DNA from: Erysipelotrichaceae bacterium 66202529
GTDB lineage: Bacteria; Bacillota_I; Bacilli_A; Erysipelotrichales; Erysipelotrichaceae
DNA length: 64,000 nucleotides
Direction: 5' to 3'
Assembly: GCA_017161075.1 (NCBI GenBank)
Contig: CP046174.1
Coordinates: forward strand, 1,054,001-1,118,000
Shown here: one piece after another, positions 45,504 to 64,000 of the stretch
How positions within the stretch are numbered: position 1 is the first letter of the stretch
How the letters are laid out: every line of letters begins with the position of its first letter
Notes under the pieces: model-generated
The model's input: the letters and a program-made list of their open reading frames with translations, nothing else
The model's database searches: none
What the model was told of the DNA's origin: nothing
Made by a program: the position numbers and the translations under genes

Positions 45504-45516
45504 AATTTCTTCCTCC

Positions 45517-45861: not shown

Positions 45862-45892
45862 TTTCGTTTCCTCCGTATGTGTTTTTCCCTTT

Positions 45893-46170: not shown

Positions 46171-46396
46171 GCTCCTCCACAACCTTTCTACAAATATCCT
46201 CGCCATAAATCACGTTCAAGCTGGAGCCATTATCCCAGGAAACCATAATCGATGCAGTGTCATCCACACCTGTAACGGTACCCTTGGTGCCAATGGGTGG
46301 GGCCTGCACGTCCTCCATCCGAACTAACTCCACACGGGAGCCAGTTGGATATTGGCGTCGAACACGGTCAACCGTTTCTTTATTCGGAAATCGCAT
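46163..46396 (-). CDS. DUF4314-like small protein
   Basis: A 77-residue protein (starts MRFPNKETVDRVRRQYPTGS) with a small beta-barrel pattern (GTKGTVTGVDDTASIMVSWDNG), typical of DUF4314. ATG 46396 follows AAAGGAGGTG. It overlaps both neighbours, so a three-gene coupled unit is likely. Confidence 0.7.
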   Translation of the reverse strand: MRFPNKETVDRVRRQYPTGSRVELVRMEDVQAPPIGTKGTVTGVDDTASIMVSWDNGSSLNVIYGEDICRKVVEEHE

Positions 46397-47099: not shown

Positions 47100-47104
47100 G
47101 GTGT

Positions 47105-47217
47105 GTACCTCCTTTATTTTGGTACTACATTAATCACTCTACAGGCACATATTAGCAAGTCAATTCCGAGAATAAACGTGACAAAGATGTGCCTTTAGAA
47201 TTGTGTATTGTACCAAG
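47105..47217 (-). promoter_or_regulatory. Promoter-like cassette, copy 2
   Basis: Minus strand: TTTGTCACGTTTATTCTCGG, AATTGACT, a 4-base gap and AATATGTGC. It aligns with copy 1 (45893-45993) at roughly two bases in three. TTGACT may be a -35 box, but no good -10 is visible. It sits upstream of the 239-residue gene. Confidence 0.5.
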
Positions 47218-47221
47218 GCGG

Positions 47222-48457: not shown

Positions 48458-49621
48458 ACTTTTTCACGACCTCCTCCAAACGAATATCTTCCTTCAGGGA
48501 GAGCGTATCCTCCCAAGTGTTATAACCAGTAAAATGACCATAGGTGGCAGTCTTTTCATAATCAGCATTGCGCAGACACAGCTTTTCGATAATGGCTGCA
48601 GGACGCAGGTTGAAGACCTCAAGGCAGGCCTTGCAGATTGCGTCGTCCGAATACTTGCTGGTACCGAAGGTATTCACAGTGAAGGCCACAGGGTCAGCCT
48701 TGCCAATGGCATAAGAGATACTGACCTCGCATTCCTTCGCAATTCGAGAGGAGACGAGGTTTCTGGCAATGTAACGAGCCATATAGGCACCGGAGCGGTC
48801 AACCTTTGAGGGGTCTTTGCCGGAGAAGGCACCACCGCCATGATGAGCAAGACCACCGTAGCTATCCACCATCAGCTTTCTGCCCGTGAGGCCGGTGTCA
48901 GCATCCGGGCCACCCTTGACGAAGCGACCGGAAGGATTCACCAAAATCTCGGTATCGTTATCAAACGGGAACTTCTCAAAAACGGGCCACAGGATATTGG
49001 AGATGATTTCGCTGCGTAGTTGTTCCAGCTGTACGCTTTCCTTATGCTGGATAGAAACCACGATGGCCTTCACACGAGCAGGCTGTCCGTCATGATATTC
49101 AATAGTGACCTGAGCCTTGCCATCTGGCAAAATATCATGAACAAGACCGGACTTACGGCATTCATCCAGCTTCTTGCAGATGTCATGTGCATAGAGCAGT
49201 GGAAGAGGAAGGTAGCAATAGCCGCCCTCATCAATGGCGTAACCATAAACAGTGCATTGGTCGCCAGCACCTATAGAGGAATACCAGCTGTCGTCGCCGT
49301 TACGGCTTTCTAAGGAGTAATTCACACCGCCAGCGATGTCCGGGCTCTGCTTTCTCATATAAACCTGAAGCAGGCGCCTCCAAGATTTCATGCCGATATC
49401 GTCCAGCACACGCCAGACGACAGCCTGAAGGCTGCCTTGGCAGTGGAGCTAATTTCACCTCCAATAATGATGCGACGGCCAACGGCCATAACCTCCACAG
49501 CAACATGAGCACTTTTGTCTTTTCGTAGATATGCATCCAAAATTGCATCGGCAATTTTATCACACAGCTTGTCAGGATGCCCTTCGCAGACAGATTCTGC
49601 AGTTTTATAAGTAATGTTCAT
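48441..49621 (-). pseudogene. metK: S-adenosylmethionine synthetase (MetK), one-base frameshift
   Basis: ATG 49621 starts MNITYKTAESVCEGHPDKLC (methionine/ATP site GHPDK). After ISSTAKA the frame runs into a stop at 49388. The rest is in the next frame: VLDDIGMKSW, SIGAGDQCTVYGYAIDE, PDADTGLTGRKLMVDSYGG, HHGGGAFSGKDPSKVDRS, so all other motifs are kept. One base is missing at about 49424-49436 (GGCAGCCTTCAGG); restoring it gives 393 residues, the normal length. Either inactivation or an assembly error. Confidence 0.85.
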
Positions 49622-49622
49622 A

Positions 49623-50177
49623 TCAATTTCCTTTCCGTGCACGCAGCAGTAGTTCCATCGTGTCATCCATTGGAGTGGCACCGTTGTACTCGTTGGCACA
49701 ATTCTCTTTTACAATTTGATAGATTTCCATCCAGAGACGATTGGTCTGGGACATAAAGTTCTGACTCATCGCCACATAGGGAGATTGGATTGCATTGCCG
49801 GTAGTGGGGTGTTTGGCTAAAAAGCCGAACTCCGAGATGGCTTCCTCACATTGAATCCACCGGGCAGCGCTCATAGCATAGCGTTCCAAAAGGTCTGGAG
49901 AGACCAAGGAAGCACAATGGCGCTCCTGCAACCATTCCCATGTTTTTTTATAAACTGTCGGAGCAAGCAGCTTTTTACCGTCCTTTTGCTTTGCGGATAA
50001 TAGTCTGGAGGGTTTGGGCATCGGCTGACCTTCTAAATCGGCTGATTGGTTATCGAAGTCAATGACAGTCAACTCTCGTTTGCCCGGATTTCCCTCGGCG
50101 AGCTTATCAGCTAAGGGCTTTTTCTTGGCTCCAGCTCCTATACGAGCACCGCCACGGTTAGTACCGTCCTTAGCCAT
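49623..50177 (-). CDS. Terminase small subunit, P27 family
   Basis: A 184-residue DNA-recognition subunit of the packaging machine. ATG 50177 follows AGGAGGTG. It has the P27 pattern (GGARIGAGAKKKPLADKL, then YAMSAARWIQCEEAI). metK follows after one base. The HNH gene upstream is typical for cos-type packaging. Confidence 0.85.
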   Translation of the reverse strand: MAKDGTNRGGARIGAGAKKKPLADKLAEGNPGKRELTVIDFDNQSADLEGQPMPKPSRLLSAKQKDGKKLLAPTVYKKTWEWLQERHCASLVSPDLLERYAMSAARWIQCEEAISEFGFLAKHPTTGNAIQSPYVAMSQNFMSQTNRLWMEIYQIVKENCANEYNGATPMDDTMELLLRARKGN

Positions 50178-50287
50178 TTTCACACCTCCTGTTCTGGGGC
50201 CTGTATACCCCGTTTGAATTTGCGACTTTGTGCGTAAGAGCCCACGCCCGTTCCACGGGAACTTCACCGTAGAGAAGTAGACCGCCC
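50178..50287. other. Gap between HNH and small terminase; possible cos region
   Basis: A 110-base gap without coding features between HNH and terS. In HNH-terS phages the cohesive-end site usually lies nearby. The sequence has a G+C-rich stretch (CCACGCCCGTTCCACGGG). No direct mark of cos is visible. Confidence 0.25.
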
Positions 50288-50647
50288 CTACCGGTTGTGC
50301 CAACGGTCTCCGTGTTCGGCATGGAGCTTCGCATGACAGCTTTTGCAAAGGGCGATGAGATTACTTCTATCGTGCGTACCACCCTGTGAGAGTGGGAGCT
50401 TGTGATGTATCTCCTCGGTCGCAACGTAACGTCCGTCCTTCAGGCACTGCTCACAAAGTGGATGGGCAGCAGCGAAGCTGTCACGGATACGTTTCCAAGC
50501 CCGTCCATAGCGTCGCTTGACAGCAGGGTCACGGTCGTATCGTTCGTAGCGCTTGTTCTCTTCCTTTTCATGTTCGGGACAGTAGCGACCCTCTGTTAGG
50601 TTGGGGCAACCGGGATGAGAACACGGTCGTTTGGGTTTTCTTGGCAT
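50288..50647 (-). CDS. HNH endonuclease
   Basis: A 119-residue nuclease with a zinc-binding CSHPGCPNLTEGRYC and CEQCLKDG, then EEIHHKLPLSQGG and LCKSCHAKLHAEHGD (the H-N-H core). HNH proteins next to the terminase stimulate cos cleavage in HK97-type phages. AAAGGAGGTG precedes the ATG. Confidence 0.9.
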   Translation of the reverse strand: MPRKPKRPCSHPGCPNLTEGRYCPEHEKEENKRYERYDRDPAVKRRYGRAWKRIRDSFAAAHPLCEQCLKDGRYVATEEIHHKLPLSQGGTHDRSNLIALCKSCHAKLHAEHGDRWHNR

Positions 50648-50672
50648 TGGCGTTCACCTCCTTTGGGCATAA

Positions 50673-50707
50673 GAAAAGCCCTGCAGGTCGGGGTGACCTA
50701 CAAGGCT
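50673..50707 (-). terminator. Terminator between the late regulator and the packaging genes
   Basis: AGCCCTGCAGGTC (50677-50689) pairs with GACCTACAAGGCT (50695-50707) with two G-U pairs, and TTTTCTTA follows on the minus strand. It ends the early operon. The late promoter should lie close by, but none is obvious. Confidence 0.7.
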
Positions 50708-50771
50708 CTCTGTGATTTTCGCTTTTCGCTATTGTAATAATATCATAGGAAGGGATTCTCATTCTATCACA

Positions 50772-51191
50772 TTAGCTCTCATGCTTTGGCGGCACAGTAA
50801 TTTCTTTTAGTGCAGCGCTGTGCATGCGGTGGATGTGCTGCATGGAATAGTTCATATCCACGGCTATCTGCTCCCAGGTGACAAAGCACAGGTAGCGCTT
50901 TTCTAAAAGGGTCTGGTATTCCACATTGGGAACTGCCTTGATGACACCCATGATTTCATGCTTCAGGTCAACCAGTGCATCAATGTCCTCGTTGATTTCT
51001 TCCTGCAGAGAAACAATCTTGATTACAGCATCAGCCATACGGGAGCCGCCATGATTCGGATTTCTCGGCATATCTGAAATCGTAGAGGTGCATCTGGTGG
51101 CCAGCTCGTTCAAGGAAGCAATTTGCTGGATTTTAGAGTTGATACGCTCGTCAAGATAACGGGCCTGTAGTAAGTATTCTTTTTCTGTCAT
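50772..51191 (-). CDS. DUF1492 / ArpU-like late transcription regulator
   Basis: A 139-residue protein. A helical first half (RINSKIQQIASLNELA) leads to a sigma-region-4-like HTH (TLLEKRYLCFVTWEQIAVDMNYSMQHIHRMHSAAL). In related phages this type of protein sits just before the packaging genes and drives late transcription. CCGGAGG precedes the ATG. Confidence 0.8.
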   Translation of the reverse strand: MTEKEYLLQARYLDERINSKIQQIASLNELATRCTSTISDMPRNPNHGGSRMADAVIKIVSLQEEINEDIDALVDLKHEIMGVIKAVPNVEYQTLLEKRYLCFVTWEQIAVDMNYSMQHIHRMHSAALKEITVPPKHES

Positions 51192-51236
51192 ACGATACCT
51201 CCGGAATTTTTATTTCCCTCGGATTGTCTTTGATTG

Positions 51237-52580
51237 TCATAGATTGGCTTTTACGGCATCAATCAAAGCGGTCTGGGTCAGCTCCTTTTGGGAGAGGGCC
51301 TTTAAGATGCGCTCGTCGATGGTGCCTTTTGTGATGAGGTGTTCTATCACCACAGTGCCGGATGTCTGGCCTTGCCTCCATAATCGGGCGTTGGTCTGCT
51401 GATATAATTCCAGTGACCAGGTCAGCCCAAACCAGATAAGGGTGGAGCCGCCAGCCTGTAAATTCAGGCCATGACCGGCAGAAGCAGGATGAATAACAGC
51501 TACCGGGATTTTTCCTGCATTCCAATCGGTGATATCCCGGCTTTCTTTGATTTCTCTTACCGGGAAGCGCCGTTTGATACGTTCCAGGTCATGCTTAAAC
51601 CAGTAGGCCACCAGAACAGGCTTGCCGTTTGCAGCCTCCAGAATATCCTCCAGCGCCTCCAGCTTCCGGTTATGAAATTCAATGGTATCGCCGATATCGG
51701 CATAAATTGCACCATTGGCCAGTTGGGATAGCTTGCCGGTAAGAGAGGCAGCATTTGCAGCAGTCACTTCACCGTCTGGGAGCTGCAATACTAAATCCTT
51801 CTTCAGCTCCTCGTAGCGCAGGCGCTCTTCCTCGGAGAGCTTCACCTCATATTTCGAAGAAATCAGCTCCGGCATCTGCAGGTGGTCAGTGGATTTCATA
51901 GAAATCGTAATATCTGAAATCTGCCTGTAGATAAGCTCCTCTGCATAGGGCAGCGGTTTGTAGGAATAGATAATCATGCCATTTCGTTTATCTGGTAAAA
52001 AATAATTGTTACGGTATTCGGTAATGAAGCGACCGAGGCGCTTGCCCATATCCAGTAACCGGAACTCAGCCCATAAATCCATAAGGCCGTTGGAGCTGGG
52101 CGTGCCTGTCAGACCTATAATGCGTTTGACCTTGGGCCGTACCTTCATCAAGGAACGGAAGCGTTTCGACTGGTGATTTTTGAAAGAGGAGAGCTCGTCG
52201 ATGACCACCATATCATAGTCAAAGGAAAATCCGCTGTCCTCAATCAGCCATCCAAGATTCTCACGGTTGATGATGGTAATATCTGCTGCAGTCATCAAAG
52301 CTGCTCGGCGTTCTTTCACGCTGCCAACAGCAACTGTAAAGGTCAGGTTTTTTAGGTGAGACCACTTTTCAAGCTCTGCTGGCCAGGTATCACGAGCCAC
52401 TCGAAGTGGGGCGACCACCAGAATGCGGTGGGCCAGAAAGCTATCGAATAACAGGTCTGCAATGGCAGTCAGGGAAATTACCGTTTTGCCAAGGCCCATA
52501 TCCAGCAGCACAGCAGCTATGGGATGCTCCTCGATGTAGTCGATAGCATAGGTTTGGTAATCATGAGGTTTGAAGTTCAA
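51237..52580 (-). CDS. SNF2-family DEAD/DEAH-type helicase
   Basis: A 447-residue SF2 translocase. Motifs: DMGLGKT (Walker A), VIDELSSFKNHQSKRF (motif II with DELS, typical of phage SNF2 proteins), GLTGTPSSNG (III), and RLWRQGQTSGTVVIEHLI (VI). The start is TTG 52580, 8 bases after GGAGG; upstream codons in the frame overlap the VRR-NUC gene without a ribosome site. It is paired with the VRR-NUC nuclease, as in many phages. Confidence 0.9.
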   Translation of the reverse strand: MNFKPHDYQTYAIDYIEEHPIAAVLLDMGLGKTVISLTAIADLLFDSFLAHRILVVAPLRVARDTWPAELEKWSHLKNLTFTVAVGSVKERRAALMTAADITIINRENLGWLIEDSGFSFDYDMVVIDELSSFKNHQSKRFRSLMKVRPKVKRIIGLTGTPSSNGLMDLWAEFRLLDMGKRLGRFITEYRNNYFLPDKRNGMIIYSYKPLPYAEELIYRQISDITISMKSTDHLQMPELISSKYEVKLSEEERLRYEELKKDLVLQLPDGEVTAANAASLTGKLSQLANGAIYADIGDTIEFHNRKLEALEDILEAANGKPVLVAYWFKHDLERIKRRFPVREIKESRDITDWNAGKIPVAVIHPASAGHGLNLQAGGSTLIWFGLTWSLELYQQTNARLWRQGQTSGTVVIEHLITKGTIDERILKALSQKELTQTALIDAVKANL

Positions 52581-52842
52581 GAAGCATTCCTCCAATCTGT
52601 TCAGGGTTATCGATGACATAAACACGAAAGCCTAAGGAGCGCAGCAGCCTGTGCCTTGCTTCCTGTAGTGGGCGTGGACGTTTTCCCGATGCCTTCAGTT
52701 CTACAAAAGCGATTACGCCATCAGGTAATAAGATAAGTCGGTCGGGCATCCCATCGAAACTCGGAGACACGAACTTTACAGCGATGCCACCGGCCCTTTT
52801 GACCGCCACAGTTAATTTGGTTTCTATCGTTTTTTCTCGCAT
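52561..52842 (-). CDS. VRR-NUC domain nuclease
   Basis: A 93-residue PD-(D/E)XK-type nuclease. The core is visible in GGIAVKFVSPSFDGMPDRLIL and AFVELKASGKRP (D and ExK). ATG 52842 follows GGGAGG. The end overlaps the SNF2 helicase by 20 bases, so the two probably act together on branched DNA. Confidence 0.88.
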   Translation of the reverse strand: MREKTIETKLTVAVKRAGGIAVKFVSPSFDGMPDRLILLPDGVIAFVELKASGKRPRPLQEARHRLLRSLGFRVYVIDNPEQIGGMLLELQTS

Positions 52843-52877
52843 ACTTGTCCTCCCGTCAGGCTTTTTAAGAAGAGCTG

Positions 52878-52968
52878 CAAGGTGTATCAAGGGTCTTTTC
52901 CTAACTTTTTCTTATAGCTTTTTTTATAGTGCTAAGAGAATTTTTGTATATGACCTTGATACACCTTG
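52878..52968. repeat. 15-bp inverted repeat around an A+T-rich spacer
   Basis: CAAGGTGTATCAAGG (52878-52892) and its exact reverse complement (52954-52968) flank about 60 bases rich in T. It lies between VRR-NUC and the primase-helicase, where a replication origin could be. It could also be a long-loop terminator or an operator. Confidence 0.6.
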
Positions 52969-52981
52969 TCATTATTAAAAA

Positions 52982-55255
52982 TCAGCTCAAGAAATCTTCC
53001 TCAGCATCGTTTCTTTGAGTCAGGCGCAGGCCCTTAAAGTAGCGCTTGCGATTCAGCGTGACACGCTCATAACCAGCGCTCTCCAAGGCAAGATAGAAGT
53101 CTGCCGTATTACGCACATAGTCATTGGTATCCAAGCAGTAATTGCGATACGCCTGATACAAACCAGAGGAGCTTTCCTTATAGGTCGGGTCAATATCGCA
53201 GCAATCCTCCATGAAGTGGCCAAACCAGTCATTTTGATTACGGTATTCGTCGATTGCCTTTTGTACGCAGGCCGGTACGGGAATCTGGTAATCCAGCTCA
53301 ATGACCTTTTTGGCACCCTCGATGACCCACGCCAGAATGCTATCACCGGCATTGTCATACAGGTACTCGCCGTAATTCTTGATGTCGCTGTTGCCGGTAA
53401 TCTTGGCACCAAACGGAATGACGATAAGGCGACGCCAGATACCATCATCGGATGCACTGACACGAGGCAGATGGTTGGTATAAAGCACCAGCGTGTGGCA
53501 GGGCTTGAAGGAGAAGGGGTCTTTATACTTCTTTTCAGCAAACACATCATCTGTGGAACAGAGCTGCTTGACGGTAGAGTCGTTCAAACGGGCACCCTCC
53601 TGCATTTCTGCTGCAATAAGCAGACGCTTGCCCTTGACCTCGGCCATTTCCGGTTTGATGTTTCTACGGCAGCCTACGGTCAGGGTGTCGGCGGAGATAT
53701 TGCCGCTGTACAAGCCAAGCACTCTGGAGATTGCATTCCAGAAGGTAGACTTACCATTTCGGCCATCACCGTAGGCAATGATGAGGGCCTCGACATAAAC
53801 CTTGCCGATAGACGCCAGACCACAAATCATCTGCACATAATCGATAAGCTCCCTATTACTCTGGAAGATAAGGTCAAGGCTATCCAGCCAAAGCTGCTGA
53901 CCCTTTTGGCTCGGTGATACAGAGGTGATTTTGGTAATGTAGTCCTCCGGCAGATGCTCCCTGGCTCCAGCCACACCCTTGCGAAGGTCATAAGTAGCTT
54001 CAGGGGTACAAAGAGCGAAGCAGTCGGCATCCAAATCTCTCGGCGAAATCTCCAGCATTGGGTGCGATTCCTTCAATGTTGAAGTGATGTTTTTGGAATC
54101 ACGGCGCTTGACTGCAAACGCCTGATAGGCCTTGGCTGCGGAAAATTCCTGAAACGCCTGCAGCTGTTCCTCATTCATCAGCTGTTCGGCCTTGCTCTTG
54201 GAGGCGCTGTCCAAAATCGCCTGTGCACCACAGTTCTTCAGCTTTTCCAAAGCGGAGAGCAGGTCGTTACCCGATTCCTTTAATTGGCGACGGGTCAGTT
54301 CATGCGCAACAGCCTGTGCGCCGGGCTCCGATTCCTGCCAATAGTGGTCAGAGTAGCGGATAAAGTGGGTGGCCGGAGAATAGCGCAGCTCTTTTGAAAA
54401 ATACTTCGACAGCACCTCAGCCTGTCCAACATCGGAATAATCGCCCGGCTTATAGCAGGAAGGGTCGTTATAAACCTCCGGTGCCACATAGTCCTCTTGA
54501 TTGGAGAGCCTTGCGTAAAAACGCTGGGCGCTGTGCCAGATAGTACCAAGCTCGCTATTATCCAGCGGCGGCTCACATTTGGCGGCTTCTTCAAGAAAGG
54601 TCTGGTAGGCCTTGTCCGTATCGCCGTATTTCTTGATGACACGACCGGCGAAGCGACTCAGCGTTGCATTGCGGCTGCCCTCCGGGATAACAGAAGAATC
54701 GTATTGCCCCTCCGGCAGACCTTCATCGAATAGGTCATCGTCCAGAAACTCAGTCAAGTTCATGCGGCCCGGATACAGTGCTACTTCGGCAGCAGCAGTT
54801 CCAAAGAAGAAACGTGCGGCATCCAGCGCCTGTGTGTCAAAATACGGAAAAATGGAATTGACCAGCTTCTTCATATCGCTGTACAGGCCAGCATCGGTTA
54901 CGGTCTCAATGGGAAATAGCACATGGAATTTGGGCCTTGCAGCCTTGCCATTTTTCTCACGCTGGTTAAAGCGGCTGTAATGAATGGCAAAGGTCACGCC
55001 TGGAAAAGCCTGCAGAACATCCTCCGGTGTAATCCAGTCTTCAGAATTTTCGGAGTGGTCATTATCGCAGTCTACCGGCAGGCAGTCGCTACCGAGGAAG
55101 TTTTCGCCATTACGATAGCTGTTTCGATACTCGGCACAAACATAATCGTGGCAAATAGCAGCTTTCAGGCTTGCCTCATCTAAAACTACCTGCTTATGAG
55201 GGTAGGAGCAGTTACCGGGATTTCCGGTAACGTCCGCAGAATAAAGTGTAAACAT
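52982..55255 (-). CDS. Phage/plasmid primase-helicase, P4/D5 type
   Basis: A 757-residue replication protein. The N-terminal primase part (1-300) has VDCDNDHSE (an acidic DxD of archaeo-eukaryotic primases). Then comes a D5_N region, and an SF3 helicase with Walker A YGDGRNGKSTFWN (about 495) and LLIAAEMQEGARL. The tail (FYLALESAGYERVTLNRKRYF) looks like a winged helix. ATG 55255 overlaps the upstream stop (TAATG). It probably opens the origin and primes it. Confidence 0.9.
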   Translation of the reverse strand: MFTLYSADVTGNPGNCSYPHKQVVLDEASLKAAICHDYVCAEYRNSYRNGENFLGSDCLPVDCDNDHSENSEDWITPEDVLQAFPGVTFAIHYSRFNQREKNGKAARPKFHVLFPIETVTDAGLYSDMKKLVNSIFPYFDTQALDAARFFFGTAAAEVALYPGRMNLTEFLDDDLFDEGLPEGQYDSSVIPEGSRNATLSRFAGRVIKKYGDTDKAYQTFLEEAAKCEPPLDNSELGTIWHSAQRFYARLSNQEDYVAPEVYNDPSCYKPGDYSDVGQAEVLSKYFSKELRYSPATHFIRYSDHYWQESEPGAQAVAHELTRRQLKESGNDLLSALEKLKNCGAQAILDSASKSKAEQLMNEEQLQAFQEFSAAKAYQAFAVKRRDSKNITSTLKESHPMLEISPRDLDADCFALCTPEATYDLRKGVAGAREHLPEDYITKITSVSPSQKGQQLWLDSLDLIFQSNRELIDYVQMICGLASIGKVYVEALIIAYGDGRNGKSTFWNAISRVLGLYSGNISADTLTVGCRRNIKPEMAEVKGKRLLIAAEMQEGARLNDSTVKQLCSTDDVFAEKKYKDPFSFKPCHTLVLYTNHLPRVSASDDGIWRRLIVIPFGAKITGNSDIKNYGEYLYDNAGDSILAWVIEGAKKVIELDYQIPVPACVQKAIDEYRNQNDWFGHFMEDCCDIDPTYKESSSGLYQAYRNYCLDTNDYVRNTADFYLALESAGYERVTLNRKRYFKGLRLTQRNDAEEDFLS

Positions 55256-55587
55256 TAGTCAAACACCTCCTTGGCTTCTTCCTCCAGTACCTTGGTGATG
55301 AATTTCAGAGCACGAATAGTGGTTTCAAGCTCACAGTCGCCGCCAAGGAAAACCTCAAAGCCTGTGGAATCACCGAAGCGGTCTCGTAGTACATGAATGT
55401 CCATATCAGTGCATCCTGCATCCTGAATACGGAAATAGGTGCGTCCGCCATGACCAGTGTCCCCACCCTGATAGCCAGTTGTGCCAGCTTCCGCTTCGAG
55501 AATGTTGCAGCTTATTACCTCACGGGTATAGGTGCTTATTTCAGTGCCGTCTGGCAGTCTTTTTCTTTTTTCGATTACTTCGTACAT
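55255..55587 (-). CDS. Small conserved phage protein of unknown function
   Basis: A 110-residue protein. ATG 55587 follows GAGGAGGTC. It contains TTGYQGGDTGHGGRTYFRI and ends in an acidic helix (VLEEEAKEVFD). It is coupled to the primase gene. No family recognised with confidence. Confidence 0.6.
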   Translation of the reverse strand: MYEVIEKRKRLPDGTEISTYTREVISCNILEAEAGTTGYQGGDTGHGGRTYFRIQDAGCTDMDIHVLRDRFGDSTGFEVFLGGDCELETTIRALKFITKVLEEEAKEVFD

Positions 55588-55591
55588 AGTC

Positions 55592-56032
55592 TTAGACCTC
55601 CTCAAGATTTTCAGTAAAGTAGCGCAAGCGGTAGTTCTTCCACTTGGCTCGTTCAATTTCAGCTTCCATGCCGGATGAGATACGTTTGCCAAACACCCAG
55701 ACCTCGGAGCACTTGCTCATTAGGGCATTTCCGAAGAACAGCCCAAGCTCTCGTTCCTGTGGGTCTGCGCCATTCAGAAACTGCGGAAATAACAAGTGTG
55801 GTGCGATAGGGATGTATCCGGCTTCTACGGCAAAGCGACTGTAGGCTCTGGCAGCTTTTAGGTTGGTGTCAATATCTCCGGCAAAGGGAGAGCAGATGTA
55901 GACGATAGGCCTGAAGGCAGGTCGTGCTCGTTCTTCCTTATCGATGACAGACAGTGCGCCATAGGCGGTGGGCCAAAAGGTCTCACCTGCCGGTTCGGTC
56001 GGTGCTTGACGCTCCCCACTGGGGAGCAGCAC
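55592..56032 (-). CDS. DUF4406-like protein with start in doubt
   Basis: The DUF4406 core is clear: FRPIVYICSPFAGDIDTN, then AHLLFPQFL, then SEVWVFGKRISSGMEAEIERAK, a nucleoside-deoxyribosyltransferase-like fold. In this frame only a GTG at 56032 is available, and it has no good ribosome site. A well-placed ATG at 56061 (after AGGAGGAAG) starts MSISKFNNE in another frame, resembling the usual N-terminus. Between them is a hairpin CTCCCC/GGGGAG (about 56000-56014). So the gene is probably shifted by an indel or small insertion, or uses an unusual start. Confidence 0.65.
   Translation of the reverse strand: MLLPSGERQAPTEPAGETFWPTAYGALSVIDKEERARPAFRPIVYICSPFAGDIDTNLKAARAYSRFAVEAGYIPIAPHLLFPQFLNGADPQERELGLFFGNALMSKCSEVWVFGKRISSGMEAEIERAKWKNYRLRYFTENLEEV
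56000..56014 (-). repeat. CCAGTGGGG hairpin inside the DUF4406 5' end
   Basis: CTCCCC and GGGGAG pair around ACT in a stretch where the DUF4406 frame changes. Its core CCCACTGG matches the left box of the 35-bp elements. It could be a partial or fifth copy. Confidence 0.4.
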
Positions 56033-56095
56033 TCCTCGTTGTTAAATTTGCTGATGCTCATTGCACGCTTCCTCCTTTCTGGGTGGCATAGAAAA

Positions 56096-56140
56096 AGAGC
56101 GTCCACCTCTAATTTCCCACTGGAGATGAACGCTCGTTTT
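56096..56140 (-). terminator. Terminator of the DNA polymerase gene, containing the left box of copy B
   Basis: On the minus strand GAGCGTTCATCTC pairs with GAGGTGGACGCTC (13 pairs including G-U) around a 13-base loop CAGTGGGAAATTA, and TTTTT follows. The left box of the 35-bp element B forms one side and the loop of this hairpin. Confidence 0.75.
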
Positions 56141-56147
56141 GAGCGGA
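56113..56147 (-). repeat. 35-bp two-box element, copy B
   Basis: TTTCCCACTGGAGA (56113-56126), 12 bases, TTGAGCGGA (56139-56147). It is identical with copy A in 35 of 41 bases over the wider region. It lies between the DNA polymerase stop and the DUF4406 gene. Confidence 0.8.
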
Positions 56148-56153
56148 TATTTA

Positions 56154-58094
56154 TTAGTCTTTTTTATAAAAATCTGTAACATACCCATCGGCACGAAGTA
56201 ACAGGCCTTCTGCCCAAGGCGGTGTGCGGCCCATCTGCTCACAGATTGCCTCAAGAGACATGCGAGGGTCGCCTTCGATAACCAATTCATCGTGGATATG
56301 CATAACAATGGAGCAGCAGCGCAGTGTTTTCATGGCATAGCATAAAATATCACGAGCAGTTGCTTGGACGATGTTTTCGACAAATTTCGGCCCGTAGGAA
56401 TCTAAGCGTTCCCATTTCTTAGTGCCGCCAACACCCTCATAGGTGATACAGCTGCCACCAAATTTGTTTATACCGACCTTTGGTTTTACATAGGCCAGCT
56501 TTCTGCCGGAGGGAAGCGTAATAAAGAGCATACCGCTGCGGCAGGAAAAGGTCAGTCCGTAATCGGTAGTGGTGTGTTTATACTTCACGGCTTCCATAAC
56601 GGCCCGGTCAACGGCCCACCAAAATTCGACAATTTTCGGGTTAGACTGTCGCCAGGCATCAACCAGTGGAGGAAGCTCCTCCTCCGTAAGGCCCATGTCC
56701 AAAGCGCCCATTGCTTTGAGTGCACCGACGCTGCCGCCATAGCCGAGGGCCAGCTCTGCGATTTTACCCTTTTGACGCAGGTGGCCATTGATGCCATGCT
56801 TCTCTACCGGTACTCGAAACATCTGACTGGCAGAGGCGCAGTAAATATCACCGCCCTTGGCAAAGACCTCCTGCCTCCAGATTTCACCTGCAAACCAGGC
56901 GATGACACGAGCTTCAATTGCAGAGAAGTCTGCAACATAAAAGCGAGTGCCTTCCCTTGGGATAAAGGCAGTACGGATAAGCTGTGAGAGAGTGTCAGGG
57001 ACATCTTCGTATAGAAGTTTTACACCCTCGAAGTCGCCGGAGCGTACAAGAGCACGTGCTTCTGCTAAATCAGGTAGATGATTTTGTGGCAGATTTTGCA
57101 GCTGAATGTTGCGTCCGGAAAAGCGGCCTGTCCGATTGGCCCCATAAAACTGAAACATGCCACGGGCACGTCCATCAGCGCATACGGTCTTTTCCATTGC
57201 CTGATATTTGCGAACAGAGGATTTTGCCAGCTGCTGACGCAGAGTCAAAACCTCACAAAGCTCTGGCGGTGCTGATTTCAAAAGTTCAGATACAGCCTTT
57301 TTATCTAAGCTGTCGGTGGCTATTCCGTTTTCGGCCAGCCACTGCTTCATTTGCTGGACGGAGTTCGGGTTTTCCAGTGCAGTAATATGCTGCATAGCTG
57401 AGGTCAGCTCCTTTCTTGAACGTTCATCCATCTCAAGGGCCTGTTGCACCAGCTCTAAGTCAAGCCTTACACCGGCGTCGTTTATCTGCTGGTCAAGATG
57501 GTATTCGTCCCAGACCATTTCAGGCACCGGGAATTTATAAAGCCTCTGTTGAATCCCCATTTCAGTTTCTACATCACGAAGCTTGTAACGCTTGAAATCG
57601 GCCCACTTATCTGGTGCATGGAAGGGACGATTACGGGTACGCTGTCCATTTGTTTTTGTAGGCGCACAGGGCTGACAGAAGTATTTGATGAGGTCTTTGC
57701 CCTCTGAAAGCTTTTGCTTTTCAAGACCAAGAACGGTACCGACACCCTCCAAGGATAACGGCAGTCCCATTGTGGCCGCCCATATCATAGAGCAGCGCCA
57801 GCTTTCAGGGTCAAGGTAGTCTCCAGTCGGATAGCCCAAGAAGCGAGAGAGGCAGATACGTTCAAAGGTGGCATTGAAAGCCCACTTGATTACGGTCTCA
57901 TCCTCCAAGGCAGCAAGTATCTCCTTTGGGATAGCTTCACCGCAGGCAAGGTCAACAACTTGCACCGGGCCAGCATCCACGCTATAGCCAAAGAGCAGTA
58001 TTTCAAAGTCGGGAGCTTCCACATAGCGGTATACGCCAGATTTTTGAAGCTGGATACTACTGTAGGTTTCAATATCAATACTCAGTGTTTTCAT
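56154..58094 (-). CDS. DNA polymerase I-like family A polymerase
   Basis: A 646-residue phage replicative polymerase. The N-terminal 3'-5' exonuclease has LSIDIETYSS (Asp/Glu of ExoI). Polymerase motifs follow: motif A VADFSAIEARVIAWFAG, motif B around KIAELALGYGGSVGALKAMG and motif C IHDELVIEG. It has no 5' nuclease domain. AAAGGACG precedes ATG 58094. Confidence 0.93.
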   Translation of the reverse strand: MKTLSIDIETYSSIQLQKSGVYRYVEAPDFEILLFGYSVDAGPVQVVDLACGEAIPKEILAALEDETVIKWAFNATFERICLSRFLGYPTGDYLDPESWRCSMIWAATMGLPLSLEGVGTVLGLEKQKLSEGKDLIKYFCQPCAPTKTNGQRTRNRPFHAPDKWADFKRYKLRDVETEMGIQQRLYKFPVPEMVWDEYHLDQQINDAGVRLDLELVQQALEMDERSRKELTSAMQHITALENPNSVQQMKQWLAENGIATDSLDKKAVSELLKSAPPELCEVLTLRQQLAKSSVRKYQAMEKTVCADGRARGMFQFYGANRTGRFSGRNIQLQNLPQNHLPDLAEARALVRSGDFEGVKLLYEDVPDTLSQLIRTAFIPREGTRFYVADFSAIEARVIAWFAGEIWRQEVFAKGGDIYCASASQMFRVPVEKHGINGHLRQKGKIAELALGYGGSVGALKAMGALDMGLTEEELPPLVDAWRQSNPKIVEFWWAVDRAVMEAVKYKHTTTDYGLTFSCRSGMLFITLPSGRKLAYVKPKVGINKFGGSCITYEGVGGTKKWERLDSYGPKFVENIVQATARDILCYAMKTLRCCSIVMHIHDELVIEGDPRMSLEAICEQMGRTPPWAEGLLLRADGYVTDFYKKD

Positions 58095-58122
58095 AAAGCA
58101 CGTCCTTTCCGCAAGTGCTAAA

Positions 58123-58150
58123 CAGGGTGACAGATTTCTCCGCCACCCTG
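58123..58150 (-). terminator. Weak hairpin between DUF2815 and polymerase
   Basis: CAGGGTG (58123-58129) and CACCCTG (58144-58150) pair perfectly. No strong T run follows on the minus strand (TTTAGC), so it is perhaps an RNA-stability hairpin and not a full terminator. Confidence 0.4.
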
Positions 58151-58171
58151 CCAGTAACTCAGATGCTATTG

Positions 58172-58744
58172 TTAGTCAAGAAAATCCTCGGCTTCCTCCG
58201 TTGCGAAATCAGACTCAGCGCTGGACTTACCACCAAGAGGCTCTCCATCACGCACCTTCTGCAGATTGTTAAGGCCGCAGGCGATGCCCTTGTTGCCAGA
58301 ACTGTTGAAGGCATAGAAGCTGATACTTGCACGACCGTATACTCCAGAGTAAACCTCGGAACGAGTCAAGATAGGATTGCGGTCTACATCTACGACGCCA
58401 GGAGCAGAGGTCGCATTGGCGTTTACAAAGTAGGCATTTGCATAAGCAGGGTCATCCGGGCGTTCCAGGTCGCCGTCACGCAGCGGAGTCTTCAAAACAG
58501 ATAGTGCCGGTACGGACTTGCCATTACCCTTGAGCTTGCTTTCGCCTTCCTTATAGGCTGCCTCGATGGCGGCTTCGATTTTAGCGACAGTCTTTGTGTC
58601 AGACTTCGGGATGATAAGGCTGACACTGTATTTCGGAGTGCCGCCATTGATAGATTTAGGCTCCCAGACGTTGGCATAGCTCCAACGGGTGTCAGGCCCA
58701 GTGATAACCTTCATGGGATTTGCAGTTTTTACATTCTTATTCAT
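58172..58744 (-). CDS. DUF2815 protein, probable ssDNA-binding protein
   Basis: A 190-residue protein (starts MNKNVKTANPMKVITGPDTR, with an acidic tail EEAEDFLD). DUF2815 proteins act as phage single-strand-binding proteins, and the acidic tail supports this. ATG 58744 follows GGAGG; the longer upstream frame is not needed. It overlaps the restored DUF2800 stop. Confidence 0.85.
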   Translation of the reverse strand: MNKNVKTANPMKVITGPDTRWSYANVWEPKSINGGTPKYSVSLIIPKSDTKTVAKIEAAIEAAYKEGESKLKGNGKSVPALSVLKTPLRDGDLERPDDPAYANAYFVNANATSAPGVVDVDRNPILTRSEVYSGVYGRASISFYAFNSSGNKGIACGLNNLQKVRDGEPLGGKSSAESDFATEEAEDFLD

Positions 58745-59879
58745 AATCGTTTTCCTCCATAAAATCATTTTTTGCGTTATTCATTGCCGGGCGCTTATCG
58801 CTCTCCGGCACGAGTGTTGGTTTACCTTGTGGCTTTTCAATGAAAGCTGTAAGTAGCTCATCAAATCTGGATTTGCCGAGACGCTTCTGCATTGCTGTGA
58901 TACCGAGCAACTTCTTCTCATAAGGGTCAAAGCCTGCATCGGTAACAGCCTGAATAACAGCATCTTCATTAGATTACTTACGATTGGAGCGCCCTTCGAC
59001 TAATTTCCAGCCGTTCCATTCCTTACCGCTGACTGCCTGTCGTAGGGCGTATTCCTTAATGTCGGAAGCCCACGCTACCAGTTCGTCCACACGGGAGAGG
59101 ATGACTTCGATTTCCGTATCCTCTAATAGAGGTGGCAGCTTGAAGTCGTGCTGTGCAAGTGAGAGATTTGCTTCAGCTCTGGCCCTGCATTCATGCTTGG
59201 CCTTACAGAAGCCACACCATTCACCACAGAGGTAGCTGCCCTCACCGGCAAAAGCTAAAGCTGCGGTTGGTTTTAGAACTTCCTCGGCCCAGCGGTAAAG
59301 CTCTTCTTTGGTAATCTCGACGGTAGAAATGTTCTGGCGTCTGGGCTGGTAGATGGTCATGCTGACCGTATCGATATCGTAAATATCATCGAACAGCTCC
59401 AGTGCACCAAGCGCATAGCATTTCATCTGCGGATTGTCCTCAGCAGAAACGAGGATACCCAAACCATGCTTGTAATCGCAAATTCGAAGTGTACCGTCTG
59501 CAATGACAATACTGTCTGCTGTACCGAAGCCTTGTTCTACCCAACGAGAGAAGTCTACTCGCTGTTCAATCAGGACGACGGGGTCAGCGCAGGTTTGCTT
59601 TGCGGACTCGACCTGTTCAAGGATGTAGGCAGCGTAGCCGGTAGCACAATCCTCCAGTTCCTCACTATACCAGGACAGGCCCTTGGTAGGATTTTTAGCC
59701 TTTTGGCCCAGCGCCTTGCGGAGCTTATATTCACAAAGACTGTGTGCCTCGGTGCCTTCTGCTGCGTAGTCGCTTCCTTTATCCTCGTAGCTTTCACCAA
59801 GCCTTGCAGAAGGCGGACAGTGAAGCCAGCGATTTGAGGAGGAAGCGGATAGAATTGCATGTCCTTTATTAGGTGGCAT
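58737..59879 (-). pseudogene. DUF2800 (Cas4-like nuclease family) gene with an in-frame stop codon
   Basis: ATG 59879 (after GGAGGTG) starts MPPNKGHAILSASSSNRWLH. The first 301 codons run to a TAA at 58976-58974. The frame then resumes directly after the stop with SNEDAVIQAVTDAGFDPYEK and reads on for 78 codons to 58737, ending just before DUF2815. The usual sequence has a residue such as Tyr at this place, so one base change (TAC/TAT to TAA) explains it. Only the C-terminal tail is lost if not read through. Cysteines CGEWCGFCKAKHEC suggest the Fe-S Cas4-like exonuclease domain remains. Confidence 0.8.
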
Positions 59880-60195
59880 CGCCAAGCACCTCCGCTTCCC
59901 TTAAGAGGGCTTCATAATTTGCCGGGTCAATCTGCGATAGCTTGCTGGCACCGTATTTTAGAAGTAGCTCACGAACTGCAGCAGTATGACCGGCACGGGA
60001 TTTATCTGCCAGTACAGCTCGTACCTGTTCCAGCGTCAGCTGCGGCTTAGGCTCTGGTTTTGTGGCTTCTTCAGCTGGCTGCTCCTCGGCAGTACCGCTG
60101 AACTGCTGAGCCAGCCAATCGGCTGCATCCTTAATAGCGGCAGCTGCATTGCGTAGTTCTTCGATGGTCATGACCATATCGTTCATTTTGCTCAT
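59869..60195 (-). CDS. Small conserved phage protein
   Basis: A 108-residue protein. ATG 60195 follows AAGGAGGAAG. Helical first part (MTIEELRNAAAAIKDAADWLA), proline-glutamate linker, and a SAP-like C-terminal half (VRAVLADKSRAGHTAAVRELLLKY). In databases similar proteins carry an rRNA-biogenesis label of doubtful value. It overlaps both neighbours. Confidence 0.65.
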   Translation of the reverse strand: MSKMNDMVMTIEELRNAAAAIKDAADWLAQQFSGTAEEQPAEEATKPEPKPQLTLEQVRAVLADKSRAGHTAAVRELLLKYGASKLSQIDPANYEALLREAEVLGDAT

Positions 60196-60340
60196 GGTAT
60201 CTTCCTCCTTCCTCGGATTGTCCTGTGGCGGCGAGGATTCTAAGATTTCTCGCCATTCTTGCGGATACCTGACTGATTGCTGTGAGTACTTCAACTAACT
60301 CGGTGTCGGTACCGCATTTTCTGTGATAAGCCTGTGTCAT
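60131..60340 (-). CDS. Small phage protein of unknown function
   Basis: A 69-residue protein. ATG 60340 follows CGGAGGTGAG. The first half is a helix (ELVEVLTAISQVSARMARNL); the C-terminal half is basic (ERYGHDHRRTTQCSCRY). Its last 65 bases overlap the next gene. Not recognised. Confidence 0.5.
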   Translation of the reverse strand: MTQAYHRKCGTDTELVEVLTAISQVSARMARNLRILAATGQSEEGGRYHEQNERYGHDHRRTTQCSCRY

Positions 60341-60386
60341 ATTGCTCACCTCCGTTTCTGAGAGGCTGTTTTGTTGTGCCTCATAC

Positions 60387-60421
60387 TTTCCCACTGGAGA
60401 GGAGTTGCAGAGTTGAGCGGA
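60387..60421 (-). repeat. 35-bp two-box element, copy C
   Basis: TTTCCCACTGGAGA (60387-60400), 12 bases, TTGAGCGGA (60413-60421). Spacing is equal to copies A and B although the middle differs. It lies between the sigma-like gene and the 69-residue gene. Confidence 0.75.
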
Positions 60422-60485
60422 TATTTTTCAAAAAAGTTTTCTCTCCGACCGAGAACGGCCCAGCCGGAGAGAAGGCTATTACCTA

Positions 60486-60992
60486 TTAATAACCACGCAC
60501 TTTACGCAGCTCAGTGCGGATGCGCTTCATCTGGTCAGCAAAGGTGCGCTGCTTGCGGCCCAGAGCCTCGGCAATGCTGCGGTCTGAAATCTTCTCATTT
60601 GAAGTCCAGAGTTCGATGATGCGGTCGGCATCAGGGTCAAGCTCCTGCAAGCGCTGGAACAGCTGTGCCAAAAGAGCACGGTCGGCATAGATGTCTTCCA
60701 TGCTGACAGTTTCGGTCAGCTCGGTATCAAGAAGTGTGCCATCGTCGTCGGTGTTTGAGGCATCGAGCGAGAGCGTTCCGTAACCGAGATGGTGTTCACA
60801 GTTTTCGCAGTCACCGTCGCAGGCCCAGAAGTATTGCTTCGGACATTTGCAGCGATGGTGATATTGCTCCTTCTTACGAGTGGCTCCGGCCATACGGTAG
60901 AAGTCCTGAAACTGCTGTTCTGTGCAAGGAATTTTCTCCTTGGTGGAGCGAAGATAGATGAAGCGAGTGGTTTGATTTTCATTGAATGCCAT
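60486..60992 (-). CDS. Sigma-factor-like HTH regulator with Cys cluster
   Basis: A 168-residue protein. The C-terminal 70 residues look like sigma region 4 (ELDPDADRIIELWTSNEKISDRSIAEALGRKQRTFADQ). The middle has CKCPKQYFWACDGDCENCEHH, a likely metal site. ATG 60992 follows CGGAGG; the longer frame upstream has no site. It is the first gene of the early operon and probably switches it on. Confidence 0.75.
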   Translation of the reverse strand: MAFNENQTTRFIYLRSTKEKIPCTEQQFQDFYRMAGATRKKEQYHHRCKCPKQYFWACDGDCENCEHHLGYGTLSLDASNTDDDGTLLDTELTETVSMEDIYADRALLAQLFQRLQELDPDADRIIELWTSNEKISDRSIAEALGRKQRTFADQMKRIRTELRKVRGY

Positions 60993-61250
60993 AATAAATT
61001 CCTCCGTTGACGATTTCTCAGAACGGAGGAACTCTGGCACAGCTGCAAAAGGGCGCAATAAATGAACCGCAGTCCTAACGGAATTACTCCGTTCTGGATT
61101 GCAGCGGCCCGCTCAAAAGGCAGCTGTTGATATTAAGTTGTCATCATAGATCGTTGAGCTACCAGTGATCAATTGGTACAATCAATGATGGTGTGAGTGA
61201 GCTTTTTCATCTCACAGCTATATTGTAATCGGGAAGAGCAGAAAGCACGA

Positions 61251-61384: not shown

Positions 61385-64000
61385 TTAAGAAACGGTATTT
61401 TTGTTACCGTTCTTAGGCAACTGCTGTGAAATTCCTGCTTCTTGAAGCTTCTGGTTCCACATATGTATGTTTTCCATGTGGTGGTTGTCTATCAAATAAC
61501 GATAAACTAGATTTTCTTCCACAGGAATCATGATGTTGTAACCAGCTTTTGTAATTAGGTCATAGGCGAAGACAGGGTGCAAATTGAGTCCAATACATAA
61601 TGCGAGTACACTTGGAAGAGTGGGTTTCGCATCGCGCTTGTTTCTATAGTCCTGAATCGTTCGTGAACTGATGCCGGTGCACTCCTCCATTTTTTCGTTA
61701 GTATAGTCACGGCGTTTTATATGATAGTCGAGAGTGCCACAGAAAGAAGATGGCATTTCAGCGAGAATTTCAGCTACACGTTTAGCCTCGGCCATGATAG
61801 TAGACATTTCCTGGGCTCTTTTAACAACATCTTCGTTTTGACTTTCACGAGGATTGTATTTCGCCTCGACAAAGCTTTTTGAATCAGCATCCCTACAGAG
61901 AAAGCAAATCCTATAGAAGGAATCATCGTAGTGTTTACTGACACGAGTTTCTCGGTCAAAGACCAGACAGCATTCATCGACATGTTCTAGAGCATATTCT
62001 GTCAATTCCGCTTCAACATTATCTTGAATATGTACATACTTCGGGTCATTGATAACAAACATGCCACCAGCATGAATGAAGCGGCCAGAGTTATATACGT
62101 TTGCAAGGTCTGCGTTAAAAGCTGACTCGAAAATAGCGTTATTACGGTCGACAATAAATGTCTGACCTTTTTTCAGAGCCCCCTTTTTGAAAGAGAATGG
62201 AGGATAGTAGTGTCCATCGACGAAATTGAATACACCTGCAGCCTGTTCAAAACCGAGCTCAATTGCACGGATTTTAGCTGCTGTGGTTGACACCTTGAAG
62301 AAATCTGCGAATTCGCTGATTGCAAGCTCCATATTCGAAGCTCTTCGAGTGGTTTTGAGGGTGCGTGTCAGGTGATTTAGAATTTCGTTTAGCTTTATGC
62401 GGCCAGTGCGAGCTGGAATAAGAATTTTGGGAGCAATAGCGCTTGCTTGCCATTCCATCCACTCAAGCTCACTGGATAGCTCATCTTTGCTTTTTTTATA
62501 TTGTTCCACCACTTTACAAGAAATTGAGGCGAGCTCAGGATTTATGAGTTTTTGAAGCTCGAAGAACTTATAATGCTTGTCCCAATGGACGCATTCGTGG
62601 ATGATTGTGTTGTTCATGGAACCAATATTGCGCATGAAAAAAGCTTCCGGGCTAACCAGTATGGTGCCCTCATCAATATCGATGGAAGTGACATTTCCCT
62701 CATCATAAACATCTACGGTGGCGTTATTAAAGTATGTACGGCCAAATATCCCATCAGGGAGAGGAGCAGAATAAACCGTAAGACACATAGCATCAAGGAT
62801 TTCCTTTATGGGTAGCGGAATGGGAGCCTCTAAGGCGCGAGGACAGTATTTCTGCAAAAACTTCTCAGCATGGCTGTCTAGGTCCTTGGCATACACATAA
62901 GGAACCAGAAATTTGCTGAGGGCATCTTCTTTACAGAATTTTTCCTTGGTATATTCCTCTACAGCGGTAATTGTGACCATAGTAAGTCCACAACGCAGAA
63001 TGCCAGTAAAAGATACGGCGAACCATGAGCAGGGCATGTCTTCTTCATAATCACGGTAAGTTTTACCTTTGATGACGATATCGGCTTGAATCGCAGCACG
63101 AAACATGATTCGATCATCTTCGGTTTCTTTAAAGGTCACCCCCATTACATGCAGATCATCAAGCGCAACATAGCTGGGATCAGGAACAAGGCTGGTATAC
63201 AAATTAAGCCTGCTTCTGTTTTGATATACATGTGTTTTTATTTGATTGAACATCATGTCATAATATTCATTCTCCAAATATGCTGCAAAAGTTTTATCCT
63301 TGAGTGCCAGGGTGACCACCTCCATGCCTTTCATTTTGTTTTTTACTATAAGACTTGTTAATTTCGAGACTAATAATTTTGATTTATCGCTCTGACGGAC
63401 AAAAGCTGCAAACTGCTCTTGAAGGTCGAGCGGCGGCATTGGAATCATTGTATTATCCAAATAATCTAAAAGCTTCAGATTGTGAATGCCGGTAGTCTTG
63501 TTTTCATACAACTTCGTTTTACCACTCCAATAGGTGACAAACAAGAACATGAATAAAAAAATGCTGTTTATTGAACAATCTTTCGGACGAAGCAGCGCTG
63601 TAAAATTGTTGAACAAATAGCTTTCAGAGGTGTCGTGATATAAAACCACACGGCCAACTGGCTTAGTGTCGGAACCTCCAGACTTTTCGATGAGAATGTC
63701 ACCGTCTTGCATTATTTTTGCTTCAACTTTTTTCGGTTCGATACATCTTGTTACAACATTGGTATAATCAATATAACCGCCATCTGTAAAATTCGTAGTT
63801 CTAAGAACCTTAATTCCAGTACCTGAAAGATCATCTTTGCCCCATTCACCGCTAATTGGCTTAAAAACCACATTGCTTACGGGTAATAATGGCCATTTAT
63901 TTTCAGCTATGGCATTAGGGCCAAACTGCACCATAAATTGAGACTTAACGAGTTCATCTGTGGCAGAAATCAGCTTTTTATAGGACTCCATCGTTTCGTT
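61385..64000 (-). CDS. HsdS specificity segment fused to ImmA/IrrE metallopeptidase and HTH; cut by right edge
   Basis: The frame is open to base 64000, so the start may lie outside. From ATG 63991 there are 868 residues. Residues 1-215 match a type I restriction specificity subunit: linker ISATDELVKSQF, target-recognition domain, and MPPLDLQEQFAAFVRQSDKSK. Residues about 228-700 form a phage ImmA/IrrE-type protein with the zinc motif IIHECVHWDKH (His465, Glu466, His469). The C-terminus (about 770-830) holds an XRE-like HTH (ECTGISSRTIQDYRNKRDAK). A buried GGAGGTG (63323-63317) followed in frame by CTG or ATG/GTG codons suggests the peptidase once started near codon 223-228. The fusion may mark attR, or be a true defence/regulator chimera. 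Confidence 0.75.
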   Translation of the reverse strand, partial: NETMESYKKLISATDELVKSQFMVQFGPNAIAENKWPLLPVSNVVFKPISGEWGKDDLSGTGIKVLRTTNFTDGGYIDYTNVVTRCIEPKKVEAKIMQDGDILIEKSGGSDTKPVGRVVLYHDTSESYLFNNFTALLRPKDCSINSIFLFMFLFVTYWSGKTKLYENKTTGIHNLKLLDYLDNTMIPMPPLDLQEQFAAFVRQSDKSKLLVSKLTSLIVKNKMKGMEVVTLALKDKTFAAYLENEYYDMMFNQIKTHVYQNRSRLNLYTSLVPDPSYVALDDLHVMGVTFKETEDDRIMFRAAIQADIVIKGKTYRDYEEDMPCSWFAVSFTGILRCGLTMVTITAVEEYTKEKFCKEDALSKFLVPYVYAKDLDSHAEKFLQKYCPRALEAPIPLPIKEILDAMCLTVYSAPLPDGIFGRTYFNNATVDVYDEGNVTSIDIDEGTILVSPEAFFMRNIGSMNNTIIHECVHWDKHYKFFELQKLINPELASISCKVVEQYKKSKDELSSELEWMEWQASAIAPKILIPARTGRIKLNEILNHLTRTLKTTRRASNMELAISEFADFFKVSTTAAKIRAIELGFEQAAGVFNFVDGHYYPPFSFKKGALKKGQTFIVDRNNAIFESAFNADLANVYNSGRFIHAGGMFVINDPKYVHIQDNVEAELTEYALEHVDECCLVFDRETRVSKHYDDSFYRICFLCRDADSKSFVEAKYNPRESQNEDVVKRAQEMSTIMAEAKRVAEILAEMPSSFCGTLDYHIKRRDYTNEKMEECTGISSRTIQDYRNKRDAKPTLPSVLALCIGLNLHPVFAYDLITKAGYNIMIPVEENLVYRYLIDNHHMENIHMWNQKLQEAGISQQLPKNGNKNTVS

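What the first reader, a model, noticed from the sequence alone, without database searches (positions are those of the whole stretch)
61385..64000. In-frame fusion of a restriction specificity subunit to a phage ImmA/IrrE-HTH protein
One frame joins a HsdS target-recognition domain to a metallopeptidase of the repressor-cleaving type and a DNA-binding HTH. A ribosome site buried near codon 225 suggests two genes became one. If made as one protein, DNA recognition would be linked to repressor cleavage; if not, this is the prophage right junction inside hsdS.
Basis: partly seen in the sequence, partly recalled or inferred. Interest (0 to 1): 0.7.

Follow-up and report, generated by a model that had tools for sequence, protein, structure and literature searches.

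The report
Restriction gene runs into phage regulator
In what looks like a gut-bacterium prophage, the last DNA-recognition gene of a shuffling-type restriction system has no stop codon and runs in frame into a phage regulator gene that keeps its own start signal, so this is most likely a read-through between neighbours rather than a purpose-built hybrid protein.

Summary
The open frame is real: 61385-64000 (-) joins a type I HsdS half to an IrrE/ImmA-type peptidase with a C-terminal HTH, and it runs off the window. It is not one strain's accident. The same junction is in P0001 (13 contigs; NCBI name [Clostridium] innocuum), a second allele has another recognition domain (P0002), and a diverged protein repeats it (P0006). 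The peptidase-HTH part is phrog_4031, a phage gene family. In 14 of 14 close sequences, this window included, it has a Shine-Dalgarno-like site and a CTG/TTG start at one fixed codon, here 63323-63308. In many relatives the slot before this gene holds restriction or BREX genes, in several a type I system whose recognition cassettes lie between direct repeats beside a tyrosine recombinase, like the pneumococcal tvr locus. The window's hsdS ends at those same repeats and lacks the usual HsdS tail. Best reading: the terminal cassette of a tvr-like array, carried as prophage cargo, abuts the regulator without a stop. A prophage junction inside a host hsdS is not supported. A working HsdS-ImmA fusion is possible but unproven.

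The parts
61385..64000 (-). Open frame joining the HsdS half to the IrrE/ImmA-HTH protein; 868 aa from ATG 63991; 5' end beyond the window
63395..64000 (-). 3' part of hsdS: end of the central spacer and second target-recognition domain (Methylase_S match at about 63383-63802)
63933..63946 (-). Repeat AAGTCTCAATTTAT (codes KSQF): 5' boundary of the exchangeable recognition cassette
63376..63394 (-). Repeat CAGAGCGATAAATCAAAAT (codes QSDKSK): 3' boundary of the cassette, identical in L002 and at three places of L011
63311..63376 (-). 66-nt array-end spacer (LLVSKLTSLIVKNKMKGMEVVT), open and in frame; stands where other HsdS proteins have FELEQ..ENLG and a stop
63308..63323 (-). Shine-Dalgarno-like GGAGGTG and CTG start codon of the regulator; position shared by 14 of 14 close sequences
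61385..63310 (-). phrog_4031 phage gene: NTF2/VirB8-like N-terminal domain (weak match), IrrE/CapP-type zinc peptidase, XRE HTH; 641 aa from the CTG
62585..62599 (-). HECVH (HExxH zinc motif); H, E and H invariant in the 60-sequence alignment
61535..61753 (-). C-terminal XRE-type helix-turn-helix
24488..28035 (-). Two large serine recombinase genes (24488-26056, 26479-28035) and between them a short one with only a Recombinase domain (26043-26474), at the end of the prophage away from the regulator
28449..61058 (-). Phage core; the genes tested, all minus strand, include amidase, holin, tail, head, portal, terminase, helicase, primase and polymerase

Best explanation
The frame is the junction between two neighbouring genes of a prophage. 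Upstream is the last hsdS copy of a type I restriction operon carried as cargo. Its recognition cassettes are bounded by the direct repeats KSQF and QSDKSK and are probably moved by a tyrosine recombinase, as at the pneumococcal tvr locus. Downstream is phrog_4031, a phage gene coding an IrrE/CapP-like peptidase plus HTH, probably a lysogeny or damage-response regulator. The terminal hsdS copy lacks the usual C-terminal tail and stop, so its frame runs through a 66-nt spacer into the regulator. The regulator is most likely translated mainly from its own conserved Shine-Dalgarno/CTG start. Ribosomes that read through hsdS could add some fused protein, whose recognition domain would change with each cassette exchange. 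Shown: the frame, the start site, the repeats, the cassette alleles and the recurrent cargo slot. Inferred: the array and recombinase in this strain (they lie beyond the window if present), transcription from the restriction operon, which product is made, and repressor cleavage.
For: Start: SD-like stretch plus YTG exactly 6 codons before a conserved [TS]F in 14 of 14 sequences examined (7 CTG including the window, 7 TTG; spacing 7-8 nt; weakest in L011). Cassette logic: after the shared QSDKSK, HsdS tails come in three kinds: FELEQ..ENLG; cassette-site FA(A/V)L..SNLNL; and array-end (window, P0001, P0002, P0006, L002, hsdS2 of L011, P0126). The window's recognition domain also occurs with the cassette-site tail (P0122, 96% identical over 85%) and with another upstream edge (P0001); a different domain sits on the same regulator in P0002. 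Array beside the gene: L011 has hsdM, hsdS, a Phage_integrase-family tyrosine recombinase, a cassette, hsdS2, a TAG, and 18 nt on, in the same frame, the regulator's CTG. The recombinase was found with a regulator homologue in 7 of 19 viral loci, in one of them on the other strand. Cargo slot: of 20 loci with a same-strand gene within 60 nt upstream, 19 neighbours were tested and 13 are clear restriction/BREX genes. In L011 a stop separates the two genes, in P0006 none does. HsdS frames that run into a following hsdR also exist (P0245, P0249).
Against: The window ends at 64000, so no tyrosine recombinase, hsdM, hsdR or second cassette was seen in this genome; the array is inferred from relatives. 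All three distinct array-end-to-regulator junctions whose frame could be checked (window, P0006, L011) are in the same frame and two are open, more than the 4-6% expected for each. P0001, P0002 and P0006 were found because they are long proteins, so this count is biased. CTG is a rare start codon and nothing here tests it by experiment. The joined frame is on 13 contigs of one protein cluster, so it persists. L002 has an array-end tail but no recombinase gene in the stretch read.
Confidence: 0.78

Rival explanations
1. A working HsdS-ImmA fusion. The hsdS recognition domain guides or tethers the peptidase-HTH protein to its target sites, and cassette exchange changes the target.
For: The frame is open in P0001 (13 contigs), in P0002 with another domain, and in the diverged P0006. 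Cassette exchange keeps the frame. A full hsdS2 stands at the same place in L011, with an upstream GAGGAGG that looks like a ribosome site.
Against: The regulator's own SD-like site and start are retained. Of the 120 best homologues 114 are under 660 aa and only 4 reach 700. The HsdS tail is missing. In P0001 the hsdS part starts at a cassette edge; its DNA was not at hand, so a ribosome site there cannot be judged.
Confidence: 0.08
2. Prophage right attachment junction inside a host hsdS.
For: hsdS is cut short just before the junction, and the regulator lies at the phage end away from the serine recombinases.
Against: No hsdS 3' end on the left of the prophage. The truncation point is the cassette boundary that also occurs inside arrays. 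Restriction genes precede this gene in many other viral contigs. In L001 the tRNA and following genes start about 15 kb upstream of the gene, past the BREX genes.
Confidence: 0.05
3. The phrog_4031 protein serves the restriction operon as its damage-responsive regulator, like CapP for CBASS, rather than lysogeny, and the tight join reflects coupled expression.
For: Closest folds are CapP and IrrE, and its HTH resembles restriction controller proteins among other XRE proteins. 13 of 19 tested close upstream neighbours are restriction/BREX genes.
Against: Homologues stand near one phage end with other cargo upstream: two of three Streptococcus suis phage records opened have resistance genes there, the third starts just before the gene. 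17 of 53 loci have an opposite-strand nearest neighbour.
Confidence: 0.2

Closest known systems
Streptococcus pneumoniae SpnIV tvr locus (PMC6265443; abstract and passages seen)
   Same: Type I restriction locus whose hsdS recognition segments are shuffled by excision and reintegration through direct repeats, with a tyrosine recombinase
   Different: As I recall it is chromosomal and not phage cargo; here the last cassette reads into a phage regulator. Shuffling is inferred here from alleles, not measured
IrrE/PprI and CapP zinc peptidases (Pfam M78)
   Different: About 640 aa with an extra N-terminal domain and the HTH at the C-terminus; target repressor unknown
C. clostridioforme LM41 prophage phi5 (PMC11318856; abstract, passages and section 16 seen)
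   Same: Published prophage with a complete type I restriction system and three hsdS genes. A table passage lists two specificity genes, a methyltransferase and an IrrE-domain gene as ORFs 9-12; the prophage number is cut from that passage but fits phi5
   Different: No fusion, cassette array or shared start described in what I saw; sequence not compared here
Streptococcus rum-integrated phages (phi-SsUD.1 and others)
   Same: Homologue of the regulator near one end of the phage, with variable cargo upstream
   Different: About 30-33% identity in the best rows; in phi-SsUD.1 the rum gene is at the cargo end, whereas here rlmD lies beyond the recombinase end

Membership tests
Type I HsdS specificity subunit | Methylase_S target-recognition domain | tested here: met
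   PF01420 E 2.3e-6; PADLOC Specificity_I models
Type I HsdS specificity subunit | Conserved C-terminal tail (FELEQ..ENLG in the nearest relatives) | tested here: not met
   The tail after QSDKSK is replaced
Type I HsdS specificity subunit | Two recognition domains | tested here: inconclusive
   One domain and the end of the spacer are in the window; the gene runs past 64000
ImmA/IrrE (Peptidase_M78) | HExxH zinc motif and M78 fold | tested here: met
ImmA/IrrE (Peptidase_M78) | Cleaves a cognate XRE repressor | not testable with these tools
   No substrate known
tvr-type shuffling restriction locus | Direct repeats bounding recognition cassettes | tested here: met
   Both repeat types in the window (one of each) and, as direct repeats, in L011
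tvr-type shuffling restriction locus | Tyrosine recombinase and hsdM/hsdR in the same locus | tested here: inconclusive
   Recombinase with hsd genes in relatives L011 and L221-L224 (Pfam run on L011 and L221 only; L011 as read has no hsdR); the window ends before they could appear and no genome is held
tvr-type shuffling restriction locus | Excision-reintegration of cassettes | not testable with these tools
   Alleles P0001, P0002, P0122, P0125, P0126 fit it but no reads are at hand
phrog_4031 | Full-length match to the family profile | tested here: met
   E 6.8e-172, profile positions 4-624 of 626
rum-integrated phi-SsUD.1-like phage | att at the rum/rlmD gene | tested here: inconclusive
   An rlmD-like gene lies at 21482-22810 beyond the recombinase end, but orientation differs from phi-SsUD.1, no att repeat was found and the other end is outside the window

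The most novel reading that the evidence does not exclude
The regulator frame is the fixed end of a recombining cassette array, so in some cells the phage's IrrE-type peptidase is made with an exchangeable DNA-recognition domain at its N-terminus. The prophage's lysogeny or damage response would then be tied to the restriction specificity currently stored at the end of the array.
Probability: 0.06. Interest if true: 0.85.

Novelty: new member of a known kind. Interest (0 to 1): 0.42.

Why it matters
It explains a protein that databases carry as a 'restriction endonuclease subunit S' of 855 aa (P0001) as, most likely, two genes with a missed CTG start. It shows tvr-like restriction arrays as recurrent cargo directly in front of one phage regulator gene. 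It gives a concrete place to test whether restriction and lysogeny control are co-expressed.

Tried and rejected
Left attachment site by shared words between 63200-64000 and 20001-30000: only 9-13 nt chance words. hsdS remnant left of the prophage: none. The hsdR query was out of frame by my mistake; one search repeats it in frame with two HsdR proteins, again without a match. Exact 32-nt junction pattern in viral contigs: 0 hits, so no DNA of another fused copy could be read; P0001, P0002 and P0006 are known as proteins only. Genome collection scan with the long protein: 1 relative. First structure model from 21 close sequences was poor (pLDDT 55.8) and was not used. Foldseek against PDB gave nothing below E 0.001; against viral models 1 match below 0.001, 81 columns. 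The VIA second look gave the CapP/IrrE match. The sequence profile search of PDB matched only in the HTH region. The paper search closest to this fusion (hsdS, fusion, ImmA, IrrE, prophage; 3 of 5 terms, 20 of 13,201 listed) and that for C. innocuum prophage restriction (2 listed) showed no such junction in their listings; some searches were on related topics. Only openly licensed PMC papers were searched. My notebook says 17 of 20 upstream neighbours are defence genes; the checked count is 13 clear of 19 tested (L010 not sent, a gene much like that of L002 by eye), 2 more probable (DUF4357/RAMA), 1 AlbA-type, 3 without a match. The loci are not independent.

Full report
What is there. The minus-strand frame 61385-64000 is open to the window edge. 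Its first part is the end of a type I HsdS: Methylase_S at residues 64-203, PADLOC Specificity_I models, and 79.9% identity to residues 155-363 of the HsdS P0125. Its second part is a full-length phrog_4031 protein (E 6.8e-172), a phage family of unknown function. The phage genes tested in the window, all on the minus strand, include terminase, portal, head protease, major head protein, helicase, primase and polymerase. Two large and one short serine recombinase genes sit at the other end. The source organism is not told; the name [Clostridium] innocuum comes from P0001.

The start. In the window and 13 close relatives (64-82% identity) a Shine-Dalgarno-like stretch precedes a CTG (7) or TTG (7) exactly six codons before a conserved [TS]F, spacing 7-8 nt, in 14 of 14. 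L011 has the weakest site. In the window it is GGAGGTG at 63323-63317 and CTG at 63310. The ORF lists here use ATG, GTG and TTG only, so they pass over CTG and reach back into hsdS. I expect the same happened for P0001, which NCBI calls restriction endonuclease subunit S; that step is inference.

The first part is a recombination cassette. L011 (contig of 50,887 bases) has hsdM, a complete hsdS, a Phage_integrase-family recombinase, a 204-aa gene, a partial hsdS cassette, a second hsdS, and then the regulator. Direct repeats coding KSQF and QSDKSK bound the cassettes, and one of each is in the window. Aligned HsdS proteins have three kinds of tail after QSDKSK. The window's domain occurs with a cassette-site tail in P0122. 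P0125 and P0126 share a second domain but differ in first domain and tail. P0001 and P0002 carry different domains on the same regulator. This is what excision and reintegration would give, as shown experimentally for the pneumococcal tvr locus (PMC6265443, passages).

The cargo slot. L002 has hsdR, an ADP-ribosylglycohydrolase-hsdM gene, a second hsdM-like gene, hsdS and a GmrSD-like gene before the regulator. L001 has BREX genes: a methylase gene, PglZ and BrxL. L221-L224 have cassettes and an hsdR-like gene directly before the regulator homologue (HsdR tested by Pfam for L221 only). Of 53 loci with enough upstream sequence, 36 have a same-strand nearest neighbour and 20 of these lie within 60 nt. 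Of those 20, 19 were tested: 13 are clear restriction or BREX genes, 2 probable, 1 AlbA-type, 3 without match. In L001 the slot ends, beyond BREX, at a tRNA-Leu gene. Two of three Streptococcus suis phage records opened carry resistance genes at this place.

The fusion. L011 has a TAG between hsdS2 and the regulator, 18 nt before the CTG and in the same frame. P0006, 66% identical to the window over 96%, has no stop. A 66-nt spacer stays open and in frame by chance in about 4-6%. Two open junctions of three are more than expected, but the open ones were found because they are long. Frame joins also occur elsewhere: P0009 joins the regulator to the ADP-ribosylglycohydrolase piece, apparently by deletion, and P0245 and P0249 join HsdS to HsdR. 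So a join after an HsdS tail needs no special function. Of the 120 best homologues only 4 reach 700 aa.

Verdict. A working link of recognition and cleavage is possible but unproven (0.06-0.08). The prophage junction inside hsdS is not supported. The anatomy fits a tvr-like restriction array as prophage cargo whose last cassette reads into a phage regulator with its own CTG start. A published prophage, LM41 phi5, has a complete type I system and an ImmA-type control module (PMC11318856). I found no print of this junction in the searches named under Tried and rejected.

Noticed in passing
window 63308-63323; L001, L002, L003, L010, L011, L013: phrog_4031 genes with a CTG at the start position (7 of 14 close sequences); in four of the relatives (L001, L002, L010, L011) a same-strand gene ends just upstream. 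The other 7 use TTG.
   Followed up: partly
P0245, P0249 (P0252 by its Pfam list only): Proteins that join HsdS domains in frame to HsdR (1409-1447 aa): a parallel case of frames running on after the HsdS tail.
   Followed up: partly
P0009: In-frame join of an ADP-ribosylglycohydrolase piece to the regulator, as if the restriction genes of an L011-like element had been deleted.
   Followed up: partly
L222:4106-7351: The array recombinase gene seems present twice in tandem, each copy followed by a recognition cassette.
   Followed up: no
L002:3134-5548; L221, L223, L226: ADP-ribosylglycohydrolase fused in frame to the first hsdM of the restriction operon (Pfam run on L002; the others, 805-806 aa, by sequence start only).
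   Followed up: partly
window 22880-24435: A 476-aa opposite-strand gene without Pfam or PADLOC match lies between the rlmD-like gene and the recombinases, preceded by short repeated words (..TTAGATGTC..); two close relatives (L135, L136) have other-looking opposite-strand genes at this place.
   Followed up: no
P0242: An HsdS with two second-type recognition domains in tandem joined at a hybrid DKSQF, as if the two repeat types had recombined.
   Followed up: no
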